Shown here piece by piece: positions 23,915 to 27,318 of a stretch of 64,000 nucleotides of DNA. The notes under the pieces are model-generated. The model saw nothing but the letters and a program-made list of their open reading frames with translations. It had not been told where the DNA came from and did no database searches. The DNA is from a bacterium (lineage in GTDB: Bacteria; Bacillota; Bacilli; Lactobacillales; Streptococcaceae). Location of the stretch: assembly GCA_905221115.1 (NCBI GenBank), contig CAJNBX010000001.1, positions 186,001-250,000 of the forward strand, read 5' to 3'. The translations under genes and the position numbers were made by a program. How positions within the stretch are numbered: position 1 is the first letter of the stretch; the number at the start of each line of letters is the position of its first letter.

Positions 23915-23943
23915 AGTATAACATTTACTGTTAGCGTTTACAA
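23915..23943 (-). promoter_or_regulatory. nox promoter with overlapping cre site
   Basis: The minus strand has TGTTATACT as an extended -10 (TATACT at 23915-23920). The cre match TGTAAACGCTAACA (23929-23942) satisfies the consensus fully and covers the -35 position, so CcpA should compete with RNA polymerase. Confidence 0.75.
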
Positions 23944-24051: not shown

Positions 24052-24094
24052 TTTACAAATTTTATTTGTGAAAACGCTGACTTTATGGTATGCT
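24052..24094 (+). promoter_or_regulatory. apbE operon promoter with inverted-repeat operator
   Basis: -35 TTGTGA (24066-24071) and -10 TATGCT (24089-24094) are 17 bp apart, with an extended TATG. A 9-bp inverted repeat with one mismatch (TTTACAAAT, TTT, ATTTGTGAA; 24052-24072) covers the -35, a good candidate operator for an unidentified regulator. I do not recognise it as a standard Rex or CcpA site. Confidence 0.6.
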
Positions 24095-24183
24095 AGTATC
24101 ATGGAAAGAAAATGTAAGGGGTTCATTTTTCATAAATTTACTATATTTCAACCTTCTTTTCATAAGAGAAAGGAGTTGGTAGC

Positions 24184-25107
24184 TTGCCTCTTAGTTCACA
24201 TTCTGAACGCCTAATGGGAACCACTATCACTATTTCATTAGTGGATGAGCGAGCCGATAGTTTGCTCCAGAAATCCTTTGATTTACTCAGAGAGCTAGAA
24301 TACCGCTTCAATGCCAATAGCCAAGAATCTGAGTTGATGGAAATCAATCATCAAGCTGGAATAGTCCCCGTCAAGGTTCATCCAGACCTGTTTGAACTGA
24401 TTTCACTTGGGTTAGAGCATAGCCTAGCGCCCTCTAGCCATCTCAACATCAGTATTGGTCCCTTGATTCAAACATGGCGTATCGGTTTTTCAGATGCCAA
24501 GGTCGCCCAACCTCAAGAAATTGAATCTGTGCTCCCTTTAATCAATCCTTACTATGTCGAGTTAGATTCTTCTGCTTCCACTGTGTTCTTGAAACAGAAA
24601 GGAATGAAAATCGATCTTGGTTGTTTAGCTAAGGGCTATAGTGCGGATAAGGTTGCCCAATTTCTTAGAAAAGAGGGAGTGACATCTGCCCTGATTAATC
24701 TGGGAGGGAATATCCTGACCATTGGAAAAAATCAGGCAAGAGGAAATCAACCTTGGCAAATCGGGATTCAAGACCCAGCCAATCCAAGGGGAAATCACTT
24801 AATGACCATCCCCGTTGTCAATCAATCTGTCGTGACTTCAGGCATTTATGAACGTCACCTGACAGTCGATGGAAAAGATTACCATCACATTTTTGACACT
24901 CAGACAGGATATCCTGTTGAAACAGAACTCGCTAGTCTCACAATCATCTCTGATAAGTCAGTTGATGGTGAAATCTGGACAACTCGACTCTTTGGAGAAA
25001 GACCTGCTTCTATCCTTTGGCAAGTCGAAAGTTTGGAGGGAATCGAAGCGATTCTGATTGATAAGGAAGGTCACCTAAGCTGTTCTTCAGGAATTCCTAC
25101 TCTATAG
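24184..25107 (+). CDS. apbE: FAD:protein FMN transferase (ApbE), cytoplasmic
   Basis: Transfers FMN from FAD to a Ser/Thr of a target protein through a phosphoester bond. 307 aa. The start is TTG with AAGGAG 8 nt before it. There is no signal peptide or lipobox, so this ApbE works in the cytoplasm, unlike the exported forms. Family features: MGTTITISL at the N-terminus, the core DLGCLAKGYSADK ... ALINLGGNILTIG, and HHIFDTQTGYPV. The usual DGLSTALF motif is altered to VDGEIWTTRLF. First gene of a three-gene operon whose last product carries two ApbE target motifs. Confidence 0.93.
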   Translation: MPLSSHSERLMGTTITISLVDERADSLLQKSFDLLRELEYRFNANSQESELMEINHQAGIVPVKVHPDLFELISLGLEHSLAPSSHLNISIGPLIQTWRIGFSDAKVAQPQEIESVLPLINPYYVELDSSASTVFLKQKGMKIDLGCLAKGYSADKVAQFLRKEGVTSALINLGGNILTIGKNQARGNQPWQIGIQDPANPRGNHLMTIPVVNQSVVTSGIYERHLTVDGKDYHHIFDTQTGYPVETELASLTIISDKSVDGEIWTTRLFGERPASILWQVESLEGIEAILIDKEGHLSCSSGIPTL

Positions 25108-25166
25108 AGACAACTGTTTCAATGGAGTTTTAAAATCGTATTATGTAAAAAGAGAAAGGAAATCTC

Positions 25167-25772
25167 ATGTTAAAACTTATTGCTATTGTTGGAACAAATT
25201 CAAAACGTTCTACAAACCGTCAATTGCTTCAATACATGCAAAAACACTTTGCTGACAAAGCTGAAATTGAACTTGTTGAAATCAAGGATATCCCTGTCTT
25301 TAACAAGCCAGCTGACAAGCAAGTACCTGCTGAAATCTTAGAAATTGCTGCTAAAATCGAAGAGGCAGATGGCGTTATTATCGGTACTCCTGAGTACGAC
25401 CACTCTATCCCAGCTGTTTTGATGAGCGCTCTTGCTTGGTTGTCTTATGGTATTTACCCACTCTTGAACAAACCAATCATGATTACAGGTGCTTCTTACG
25501 GTACGCTTGGTTCATCACGTGCTCAAATGCAACTTCGCCAAATCTTAAACGCACCAGAAATCAAAGCAAGTGTCCTTCCTGATGAATTCTTGCTTTCACA
25601 TTCTCTTCAAGCCTTTAATCCAAGTGGAGATCTAGTAGATCTTGATGTTATTAAAAAACTGGATGCCACTTTTGACGACTTCCGTATCTTTGTAAAAATT
25701 ACAGAAAAATTGCGCAACGCACAAGCCCTACTTCGCAAAGATGCTGAAGACTTTGACTGGGAAAATTTGTAA
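25167..25772 (+). CDS. NAD(P)H-dependent FMN reductase, single domain
   Basis: Flavodoxin-fold reductase of the NADPH-dependent FMN reductase family. 201 aa. The phosphate-binding loop is GTNSKRSTNRQLLQY (about 9-23). The flavin and Tyr region GTPEYDHSIPAVLMSALAWL and the loop GASYGTLGSSRAQMQLRQIL follow. The C-terminal about 25 residues are charged and helical. The start has AAAGGAAA upstream. It is 59 nt behind apbE and 18 nt before its longer paralogue, with which it shares about the first 170 residues by pattern, suggesting duplication and a possible heteromeric partner. Confidence 0.9.
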   Translation: MLKLIAIVGTNSKRSTNRQLLQYMQKHFADKAEIELVEIKDIPVFNKPADKQVPAEILEIAAKIEEADGVIIGTPEYDHSIPAVLMSALAWLSYGIYPLLNKPIMITGASYGTLGSSRAQMQLRQILNAPEIKASVLPDEFLLSHSLQAFNPSGDLVDLDVIKKLDATFDDFRIFVKITEKLRNAQALLRKDAEDFDWENL

Positions 25773-25790
25773 GATAGGAGACCAAAAAGA

Positions 25791-27026
25791 ATGAAATTTG
25801 TTGGACTTGTAGGATCAAACTACGATCAATCATATAACCGTAAACTCTTGGAATTCATCCGTCGTCACTTCAAACTCAAATTTGAATTAGAAGTTCTCGA
25901 AATTGACGAAGTTCCAATGTTCAACCAAGACGAAAAATGGGATGAAAGTTTCCAATTGCGTCTCTTGTATAACAGAATTACGCGTGCTGATGGTGTCATT
26001 ATCGCTACTCCTGAGCACAACCACACAATCTCAGCTTCTCTAAAATCTGTTCTTGAATGGCTTTCATACGAAGTTCATCCATTTGAAAACAAACCAGTCA
26101 TGATTGTGGGAGCTTCTTACTACGACCAAGGTACTTCTCGTGCCCAAGTTCACCTTCGTAAGATTCTTGACGCTCCAGGTGTCAATGCCTACACACTTCC
26201 AGGAAATGAATTCCTTCTTGGTAAAGCCAAAGAAGCTTTCGACGATGAGGGCAATATCACAAATGAAGGAACTGTTAATTTCCTTGAAACATGCTTGGAC
26301 AACTTTGTAAAATATGTGGGAGTCGTTTCAAAATTGAAAAAACCAAAACCAATTGAGCCAGAAGATTTATATTGTACAAATTCAATTGCAACTACCATCC
26401 AAGGTGTTGATCCAGATGATCCTGAATGGGTAGAAAAAGCTGCCGAACTTGTTGGAGCTGTTTCTGGAGATACTTACGTTAAATTAGACCACGGTATCTT
26501 GACAGTTAACCAAATTGATATGTTCTTGAAGGCAATGCCATTTGAATTGACATTTGCAGATGATAACAATCAATTCTTGTACTTTAATAACGCACACCAA
26601 GACCCAGATACAATGTTTGGTAAACGTGTACGTGCTCAATCAGGAAATAGATTAGGAACAGTACACGGTACATTGCCAGATTCTAGAATGAAAAACGTTG
26701 AATGGGTTGTCGGCGTATTGCGTAACGGGGATCAAGAATATGTCCGTACAATTGTGCCGGGAACACCTGAAGGTGTTATTAACACCCATAATTACCAAGC
26801 AATGTACTATCCAGATGGTTCATATGCTGGAATCAATGAAATCATCTTTAATTTCCAACCATGGCTTGACTGGTACCTCAACACGACTGGTCAACGTCTA
26901 GTTGGTGGAAATGCAGCTCCTGCCGGAGGACACGGTGGCGCAGATGCCACATCTGGAGCTTCTGATTCAGGTGATGCTGGAGGACACGGTGGTGGCGCAG
27001 ACGCTACATCTGGCGCAAGTAACTAA
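25791..27026 (+). CDS. FMN reductase-PAS fusion with tandem flavinylation motifs
   Basis: 411 aa. Residues 1-190 are an FMN reductase domain like the preceding gene (GLVGSNYDQSYNRKLLEF, ATPEHNHTISASLKSVLEWL, GASYYDQGTSRAQVHLRKIL). Residues about 225-370 look like the PAS domain at the end of DUF438-type proteins (LTFADDNNQFLYFN, GKRVRAQSG, VHGTLPDSR, INEIIFNFQPW). Residues 371-411 are a low-complexity Gly/His tail with two copies of DATSGAS (385-391 and 404-410), a match to the ApbE acceptor motif D-x-x-(S/T)-G-A-(S/T), each preceded by GGHGG. With apbE in the operon, covalent FMN on the tail is a reasonable inference; the electron acceptor is unknown. Confidence 0.85.
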   Translation: MKFVGLVGSNYDQSYNRKLLEFIRRHFKLKFELEVLEIDEVPMFNQDEKWDESFQLRLLYNRITRADGVIIATPEHNHTISASLKSVLEWLSYEVHPFENKPVMIVGASYYDQGTSRAQVHLRKILDAPGVNAYTLPGNEFLLGKAKEAFDDEGNITNEGTVNFLETCLDNFVKYVGVVSKLKKPKPIEPEDLYCTNSIATTIQGVDPDDPEWVEKAAELVGAVSGDTYVKLDHGILTVNQIDMFLKAMPFELTFADDNNQFLYFNNAHQDPDTMFGKRVRAQSGNRLGTVHGTLPDSRMKNVEWVVGVLRNGDQEYVRTIVPGTPEGVINTHNYQAMYYPDGSYAGINEIIFNFQPWLDWYLNTTGQRLVGGNAAPAGGHGGADATSGASDSGDAGGHGGGADATSGASN

Positions 27027-27037
27027 TAATAGTTTTG

Positions 27038-27060
27038 GGAACCATATTGGTTCCTTTTTT
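27038..27060 (+). terminator. Terminator of the apbE operon
   Basis: A 6-bp stem (GGAACC / GGTTCC) with a 5-nt loop and TTTTTT follows 12 nt after the stop codon. Confidence 0.8.
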
Positions 27061-27318
27061 GGCTCTTTGTCAACTGTACTTGGTGGGATGTCAATCCTAC
27101 TTTATGGAGTTATCGCCAGCAACGGTTTGAAAGTCTTGATTAAAGAACGTGTTGATTTCGCTCAAATGCGTAACCTCATCATCGCAAGTGCTATGTTGGT
27201 CCTTGGACTTGGAGGAGCTATCCTTAAACTTGGTCCAGTTACCCTTTCAGGTACTGCCCTATCAGCCATGACAGGAATCATCTTGAACTTGATCTTGCCA
27301 TACGAAAATAAAGATTAA
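27052..27318 (+). pseudogene. Uracil permease, C-terminal remnant
   Basis: 88 codons ending in a stop read FFGSLSTVLGGMSILLYGVI, then ASNGLKVLIKERVDFAQMRN and a last hydrophobic segment ending ILPYENKD. This is the C-terminal part of a UraA/PyrP nucleobase permease (GGMSILLFGVIASNGLR signature). The rest of the gene is missing: the 5' edge fuses directly to the terminator of the apbE operon, and the same frame continues upstream only as an out-of-frame reading of the tail of the preceding gene. In pneumococcus I recall an intact uracil permease beside ffh, so this is the scar of a deletion or block replacement. Confidence 0.85.

What the first reader, a model, noticed from the sequence alone, without database searches (positions are those of the whole stretch)
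24052..27026. Cytoplasmic flavinylation operon: ApbE, FMN reductase, and an FMN reductase-PAS protein with two ApbE motifs
Seen: a signal-less ApbE is followed by two paralogous FMN reductase genes. The second has a PAS-like domain and a Gly/His tail with the sequence DATSGAS twice, each after GGHGG. Known: ApbE attaches FMN to the last Ser/Thr of D-x-x-(S/T)-G-A-(S/T), usually in FMN_bind domains of exported or respiratory proteins. Inference: the tail is a swinging arm carrying two covalent flavins, fed by the reductase domain and possibly sensed or passed on via the PAS domain, in a cell without respiratory chain. I know of no described system with this architecture. Ser rather than the commoner Thr is the acceptor in both copies.
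Basis: partly seen in the sequence, partly recalled or inferred. Interest (0 to 1): 0.8.

Follow-up and report, generated by a model that had tools for sequence, protein, structure and literature searches.

The report
Reductase with PAS and flavin-tagged tail
A mouth streptococcus carries a three-gene cassette whose last protein looks built to have FMN cofactors chemically fixed onto a floppy tail inside the cell; related reductases are already known to be modified this way, but the tie to a PAS domain that keeps recurring beside such tails is new and untested.

Summary
A signal-less apbE, a short FMN reductase ("PAR") and a 411-aa protein ("FRP": FMN_red + PAS_10 + disordered tail with DATSGAS twice) form an operon. 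Two strict motifs arise in about 1 in 100,000 shuffles of this tail. Relatives keep the tail; none of 31 ApbE-less genomes of the order showed a full-length FRP, against at least 120 of 264 with ApbE.

"No described system" is too strong: FMN_red proteins with C-terminal motif tails were shown to be flavinylated by cognate ApbE in Lactococcus (PMC11334425).

New here: (1) the FMN_red tree splits into short and long chains shared with an FMN_red-FMN_bind-FAD_binding_2 pair, so PAR and FRP are probably a heterodimer; (2) the same parts occur reshuffled: tailed FMN_red plus separate PAS_10 gene (6 of 10 loci), and separate PAS_10-tail gene plus two tail-less FMN_reds (12 of 13 genomes of one genus). 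A tail on a protein without FMN_red argues against a mere cofactor anchor.

Best reading: NAD(P)H -> FMN of the reductase pair -> tail FMNs beside PAS_10 -> unknown acceptor. No flavin was measured. New variant of a known kind.

The parts
24066..24094 (+). putative promoter of the operon: -35 TTGTGA (24066-24071), 17-nt spacer, -10 TATGCT (24089-24094), overlapped by a cre-like TGTGAAAACGCTGACT
   Evidence: sequence; a TTGTGAAAAC-like element stands upstream of apbE in most streptococcal loci printed; the cre reading is by eye from a recalled consensus
24184..25107 (+). apbE, FAD:protein FMN transferase, no signal peptide seen, 307 aa
   Evidence: PF02424 256 bits; 257 bits to 7esa (taken as Listeria FmnB from recall); catalytic Ser and His and the Arg kept, triad Asp aligned with Glu
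25167..25772 (+). PAR: short single-domain FMN_red, 201 aa, proposed heterodimer partner
   Evidence: PF03358; a short FMN_red frame near FRP in all 80 loci listed, by a stricter adjacency rule 110 of 110 and 70 of 80; clade with CrdA-like chains
25791..27026 (+). FRP: FMN_red + PAS_10 + flavinylation-motif tail, 411 aa
   Evidence: PF03358, PF13596; AlphaFold2 model, mean pLDDT 71
25791..26231 (+). FMN_red domain of FRP (aa 1-147)
26514..26855 (+). PAS_10 domain of FRP (aa 242-355); His292 invariant in the alignments made
   Evidence: 2qkp 5.8e-08
26904..27023 (+). disordered Gly/His/Ala/Ser tail (aa 372-411)
   Evidence: pLDDT below 50 throughout
26943..26963 (+). flavinylation motif 1, DATSGAS, acceptor Ser391
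27000..27020 (+). flavinylation motif 2, DATSGAS, acceptor Ser410

Best explanation
A cytosolic NAD(P)H:flavin electron-transfer module. ApbE attaches FMN to Ser391 and Ser410 of FRP (inferred; shown in print only for related FMN_red proteins). FRP pairs with PAR through their FMN_red domains, each able to hold a non-covalent FMN (inferred from the shared short/long ancestry). Electrons pass from NAD(P)H to those FMNs and on to the tail FMNs, which move on a flexible tether and hand them to an acceptor bound at, or gated by, the PAS_10 domain (inferred; acceptor unknown). It works like the soluble FMN_red-FMN_bind-FAD_binding_2 reductases, with the FMN_bind and FAD modules replaced by a tethered flavin tail and a PAS.
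For: Motif beyond composition while spacers drift. Full-length FRP rows for at least 120 of 295 genomes of the order (counted by hand); the 31 without ApbE (20 listed, 11 deduced from missing handles) have none: only G045, G139 and G196 match at all, by reductase frames of about 170-190 residues. Fisher 5e-8 ignores relatedness. apbE inside the fetched locus in 79/80, 29/30 and 63/80. 28 of 37 FRP-bearing same-genus genomes have one ApbE and no FMN_bind hit (by hand). In G001 only FRP has two strict motifs in frame. Cassette intact on L. lactis and E. faecium plasmids. Tree: {PAR, CrdA-like} versus {FRP, CrdB-like} at 100/100; short FMN_red upstream of the long chain in 10 of 10 fetched FMN_red-FMN_bind-FAD-type loci, domains scanned for L218 only. 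Separate PAS_10 gene beside PAS-less tailed FMN_red in 6 of 10 loci. Separate PAS_10+tail gene in 12 of 13 genomes of genus g9, 11 with at least one strict motif, each genome with two neighbouring FMN_red frames. PAS+tail duplicated in P0162 and L188. Precedent for flavinylation; seven-residue terminal tags suffice (PMC12052999 passages).
Against: No flavin, partner contact or activity was measured. This ApbE subfamily has Glu for the triad Asp. Tested ApbEs prefer Thr: Ser lowered flavinylation 10-55% (PMC12052999 passage). 18 of 80 non-genus tails have no strict motif; L184 is degenerate and L167 lost the Asp (Asp loss had minor effect in a Klebsiella target). Three same-genus genomes (G052, G068, G122) keep apbE without FRP or FMN_bind, so ApbE there has another role or is decaying. 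apbE was outside the fetched stretch in 17 of 80. A double-PAS relative has no motif (L248); L279 has no motif in its tail frame. No acceptor or output domain is identifiable. The PAS-alone fold failed (pLDDT 34).
Confidence: 0.56

Rival explanations
1. Anchor model: the tail FMN folds back into the FMN_red active site and simply prevents loss of the cofactor; PAS is a structural or regulatory add-on.
For: Proposed for the Lactococcus proteins from AlphaFold models with the site near the FMN pocket (PMC11334425 section 6). One-motif, PAS-less forms exist (L232, L233, L237, L244).
Against: Most FRPs carry 2-4 relaxed motifs but one FMN_red site per chain; PAR has no tail; in genus g9 the tail sits on a PAS protein with no FMN_red domain. 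With a heterodimer, two motifs could still serve two sites in FRP itself.
Confidence: 0.16
2. Redox sensor: tail flavins report the NAD(P)H state to the PAS domain, which signals to another protein; no metabolic acceptor.
For: PAS domains commonly sense (recalled); an HTH regulator gene lies upstream in 35 of 80 non-genus loci and a Crp/Fnr gene near the L. lactis cassette.
Against: No output domain; no regulator beside it in the window; the homologous pair carries an enzyme's FAD_binding_2 domain.
Confidence: 0.15
3. The tail is not flavinylated in vivo: the motifs are relics or serve another purpose, and ApbE acts on something else.
For: apbE-only genomes and degenerate tails; triad Asp to Glu.
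Against: Motif persistence against shuffles, apbE linkage, no FMN_bind protein in 28 genomes, printed precedent.
Confidence: 0.1

Closest known systems
ApbE-flavinylated FMN_red proteins of Lactococcus (PMC11334425; WP_021723379.1, WP_205872264.1)
   Same: FMN_red with C-terminal extension carrying 1-2 ApbE motifs, co-localised with apbE, mainly Firmicutes, Ser/Thr acceptor
   Different: FRP has PAS_10 between reductase and tail and a tandem short FMN_red partner; no PAS is mentioned in section 6 or in the passages shown to me, and the accessions could not be checked. A Lactococcus-like genus has both a PAS-less form and the FRP form
Soluble FMN_red-FMN_bind-FAD_binding_2 reductase with short FMN_red partner (CrdAB, NADH:cinnamate reductase of Vibrio ruber, recalled; not found)
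   Same: two-gene short/long pair, homologous chain by chain; long chain carries the covalent-FMN module
   Different: FRP lacks FMN_bind and FAD_binding_2 and has PAS_10 plus tail instead
Cytosolic ApbE / soluble fumarate reductase of Klebsiella (as told in PMC12052999, passages)
   Same: signal-less ApbE acting on a soluble cytosolic flavoenzyme
   Different: FRP has no FMN_bind domain; its motifs lie in a disordered tail
PAS_10 domain of SMU_1151c (2qkp)
   Same: PAS_10 sequence and fold match, including the conserved His
   Different: no reductase or flavinylation tail in the solved fragment

Membership tests
ApbE-flavinylated FMN_red (PMC11334425 class) | PF03358 domain | tested here: met
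ApbE-flavinylated FMN_red (PMC11334425 class) | C-terminal extension with at least one D-x-x-[ST]-G-A-[ST] | tested here: met
ApbE-flavinylated FMN_red (PMC11334425 class) | co-localised apbE | tested here: met
ApbE-flavinylated FMN_red (PMC11334425 class) | covalent FMN shown biochemically | not testable with these tools
   needs expression and gel or mass
ApbE FMN transferase | PF02424 over cut-off | tested here: met
   256.4 bits against 25.6
ApbE FMN transferase | catalytic Asp-Ser-His triad (FmnB Asp301-Ser257-His273) | tested here: inconclusive
   Ser and His aligned and kept; Asp aligned with Glu (alignment, my residue count; triad from PMC12052999 passage); Glu pattern in 133 of 171 ApbE frames, 38 not matched by the pattern
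CrdAB-type heterodimeric reductase | tandem short and long FMN_red chains of the two clades | tested here: met
CrdAB-type heterodimeric reductase | FMN_bind (PF04205) in the long chain | tested here: not met
   no hit at E 0.1; so it is not filed as a member
CrdAB-type heterodimeric reductase | FAD_binding_2 (PF00890) in the long chain | tested here: not met
PAS_10 | PF13596 over cut-off | tested here: met
   76.4 bits against 22.1

The most novel reading that the evidence does not exclude
PAS_10 plus a multiply flavinylated disordered tail is a portable cytosolic redox carrier, made by cells either as its own protein, fused to an FMN reductase, or split with the tail on the reductase. PAS_10 docks the tethered FMNs and relays electrons from a heterodimeric NAD(P)H:FMN reductase, so disorder plus ApbE tagging replaces a folded FMN_bind domain in fermenting bacteria.
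Probability: 0.38. Interest if true: 0.82.

Novelty: new variant of a known kind. Interest (0 to 1): 0.63.

Why it matters
ApbE flavinylation is studied mainly outside the cytosol. This cassette may explain why streptococci without an FMN_bind protein keep apbE, gives a testable role to a conserved uncharacterised pair of 'NADPH-dependent FMN reductases' (SPD_1301/SPD_1302 in S. pneumoniae D39; the match to SPD_1302 rests on gene order), and offers a natural multi-flavin tail that evolution has moved between a reductase and a PAS protein. Heterodimer formation and tail function can be tested directly in laboratory hosts.

Tried and rejected
Chance motif in low-complexity sequence: rejected by shuffles. 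Another strict-motif substrate in G001: the pattern gave 18 DNA hits against 6 for the reversed control; besides FRP, two long frames carry one motif each, a YSIRK-type surface protein and a frame that looks ATPase-like by eye; relaxed motifs were not scanned genome-wide. PAR and FRP as a recent local duplication: rejected, each groups with a different Crd-like chain (no outgroup, midpoint root, bootstrap not fully settled, a few long rows). PAS modelled alone: failed, not used. Foldseek/VIA rows were mostly FMN_red and flavodoxin-like chains, so nothing is claimed on PAS relatives beyond 2qkp. Own-genome searches impossible. Literature: 0 papers with all of 'flavinylation, ApbE, Streptococcus, FMN reductase' or of 'FMN reductase, PAS domain, ApbE'; CrdAB not found; the library is open-licence papers only. 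PMC3391171 (spr1326) was looked at and dropped: gene identity unsure. Whether WP_021723379.1 has PAS: six Lactococcus plasmid records were read; five list FRP under another accession and one does not annotate it.
Full report
What is there. The window belongs to the Streptococcus mitis group: the best relatives of the 411-aa protein in named genomes are S. mitis records at 99%. Three + strand genes follow each other with gaps of 59 and 18 nt: apbE, a short FMN reductase (PAR) and the FMN_red-PAS-tail protein (FRP). The divergent neighbour is a water-forming NADH oxidase (NF046103). ApbE starts without a visible signal peptide; a crude pattern screen flagged none of 171 ApbE frames in the fetched loci.

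The tail. FRP residues 372-411 are predicted disordered and hold DATSGAS twice. In the 120 listed homologues of the window protein (of 1364 found) tails vary in length and spacer while strict motifs recur one to three times; P0015 alone has none. In 240 listed homologues from two searches, 184 have at least one strict D-x-x-[ST]-G-A-[ST] and 240 at least one relaxed motif with Gly, Ser or Ala at position five (near-copies included; one partial protein and one paralogue dropped). Outside the genus, 62 of 80 loci have a strict motif and 78 of 80 a relaxed one, 77 of them with two to five relaxed copies; the two without are L167 and L184 (L188 was mis-sliced but has motifs). Ser for Gly occurs in 82 of 219 motifs; its effect was not tested here, and a Gly-to-Ala change about halved flavinylation in a Klebsiella target (PMC12052999 passage).

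Link to ApbE. Full-length FRP rows exist for at least 120 of 295 genomes of the order (37 same-genus, 83 others; my count of rows down to E 1e-104) and ApbE in 264. None of the 31 ApbE-less genomes has such a row; three match by reductase frames only. Among 45 same-genus genomes with ApbE, 37 have FRP; 28 of these have one ApbE and no FMN_bind hit. Eight lack FRP: five have an FMN_bind hit, three (G052, G068, G122) have neither. In non-genus loci apbE was within the fetched stretch in 63 of 80; by the listing the genomes of the other 17 have an ApbE somewhere. In the alignment to 7esa the Ser and His and the FAD-contacting Arg named for FmnB are kept but the triad Asp is Glu (mapping by my count). 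133 of 171 ApbE frames match [DE]GEIW[TS]T; 38 escape the pattern, one being DCEIWTT. The apbE genes beside Lactococcus-like tailed reductases read mostly GEIETT, L233 GEIETS, L235 AEIETT, L237 and L244 GEIEAK. So Glu marks this group rather than a dead enzyme (inference).

The pair. A short FMN_red frame lies near FRP in all 80 non-genus loci as listed; by a stricter same-strand, under-400-nt rule in 80/80, 30/30 and 70/80. The FRP reductase domain also matched frames of about 750-820 aa. Ten such loci were fetched; in 10 of 10 a short FMN_red precedes the long gene, and L218, the only one scanned, reads FMN_red + FMN_bind + FAD_binding_2. A tree of 77 domains splits into PAR + CrdA-like and FRP + CrdB-like at 100/100. 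So the short/long pair predates the split of the two systems. I recall that the Vibrio ruber Crd enzyme is a heterodimer through these domains; I could not read it.

PAS_10 and tail as movable parts. PAS_10 passes the Pfam cut-off and matches 2qkp; His292 is invariant in 53 aligned homologues and in six stand-alone relatives. Form 1, as in the window: FMN_red-PAS_10-tail plus PAR. Form 2: in two genera of the family (g81, which holds G336 with an FRP 99% identical to the L. lactis plasmid copy, and g75), an FMN_red of 198-337 aa with C-terminal motifs and no PAS, apbE next to it in 9 of 10 loci; in 6 of 10 a stand-alone PAS_10 gene follows. Those six have 2-4 strict motifs, the four without PAS have one (small, related sample). 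Form 3: in genus g9, 12 of 13 genomes have a separate PAS_10-tail gene (frames of 229-266 aa, no FMN_red active-site motif found) and all 13 list two neighbouring FMN_red frames; Pfam confirms PAS_10 for L246 and L247 and tail-less FMN_red for the pairs in L249 and L250, with apbE a few hundred to two thousand bases downstream of those pairs. Of the 12 PAS-tail frames 11 have at least one strict motif, mostly three; L279 has none and L271 has one. G010 has a second PAS_10 frame with one motif (L251), and a double-PAS protein in G092 has none (L248). Form 4: PAS and tail duplicated in series in P0162 and L188. Fusion, neighbourhood, separation together and joint duplication all tie PAS_10 to the flavinylated tail; what passes between them is unknown.

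Mechanism, with status. FMN on Ser391/Ser410: inferred, with printed precedent in related proteins (PMC11334425 section 6 read, passages). FRP/PAR heterodimer: inferred from ancestry and gene order. Electron path NAD(P)H to FMN to tail FMN: inferred from the homologous enzyme type. Terminal acceptor: unknown. The anchor model of PMC11334425 may hold for form 2 but cannot be the general role if form 3 tails are flavinylated.

Regulation. A TTGTGAAAAC-like element at promoter spacing stands upstream of apbE in most streptococcal loci printed and looks like a promoter overlapped by a cre site (consensus recalled). In S. pneumoniae D39 SPD_1301 and SPD_1302 fell 2.2-fold in a pflB mutant on galactose, where ccpA fell 2.1-fold (PMC5327383 table passages). 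SPD_1301 is listed at 0.25 and 0.73 in proteomics tables on SPD_0090 and SPD_1590 (PMC9234739, PMC6062600 passages), apbE and azr_1 at about 1.5 in one column of PMC11559097 (passage), and both reductases at about 1.9 in PMC8546594 (passage). These show expression, not function.

Mobility. The cassette sits on L. lactis plasmids with a Crp/Fnr gene nearby and on an E. faecium plasmid with IS1216 copies on both sides; on L. lactis pA12-4 the FRP match is in two pieces and unannotated.

Verdict. Observation right, interpretation mostly plausible, novelty overstated for flavinylated FMN_red as such; the PAS_10-tail module and its reshuffling are the fresh part. New variant of a known kind, widespread and testable.

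Noticed in passing
window 27031-27315: C-terminal remnant of a uracil/xanthine permease (PF00860, 7.8e-08, model positions 329-385 of 389) directly after FRP, with no N-terminal part next to it. In L197 a permease-like frame (by eye) lies beside an apbE.
   Followed up: partly
window 23929-23942: TGTTAGCGTTTACA upstream of the divergent nox gene looks like a cre site (consensus recalled).
   Followed up: no
L234, L235, L236, L238, L239, L240: Tails of the PAS-less FMN_red form carry a repeated GWWIE-like peptide between motifs (two per tail by pattern), possibly a docking or stacking element.
   Followed up: no
L220:9604-10467: 288-aa FMN_red + FMN_bind protein without a FAD domain, a possible intermediate form.
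   Followed up: partly
e.g. L133:4530-5402, L193:2113-2970: HTH_3 regulator upstream on the same strand in 35 of 80 non-genus loci.
   Followed up: partly
L197, L198, L199: Same-genus genomes with an apbE but no FRP and no FMN_bind hit: substrate unknown.
   Followed up: partly
L246, L247, L257, L259, L261, L264-L268: Genus g9: separate PAS_10-tail proteins with two or three strict motifs, away from the FMN_red pair and apbE in the loci read (L246, L247 versus L249, L250).
   Followed up: yes
L193 (E. faecium plasmid): Cassette between IS1216 copies; tail has DAVSSAS, DAVTSAS, DAVSSAS and no strict motif.
   Followed up: partly
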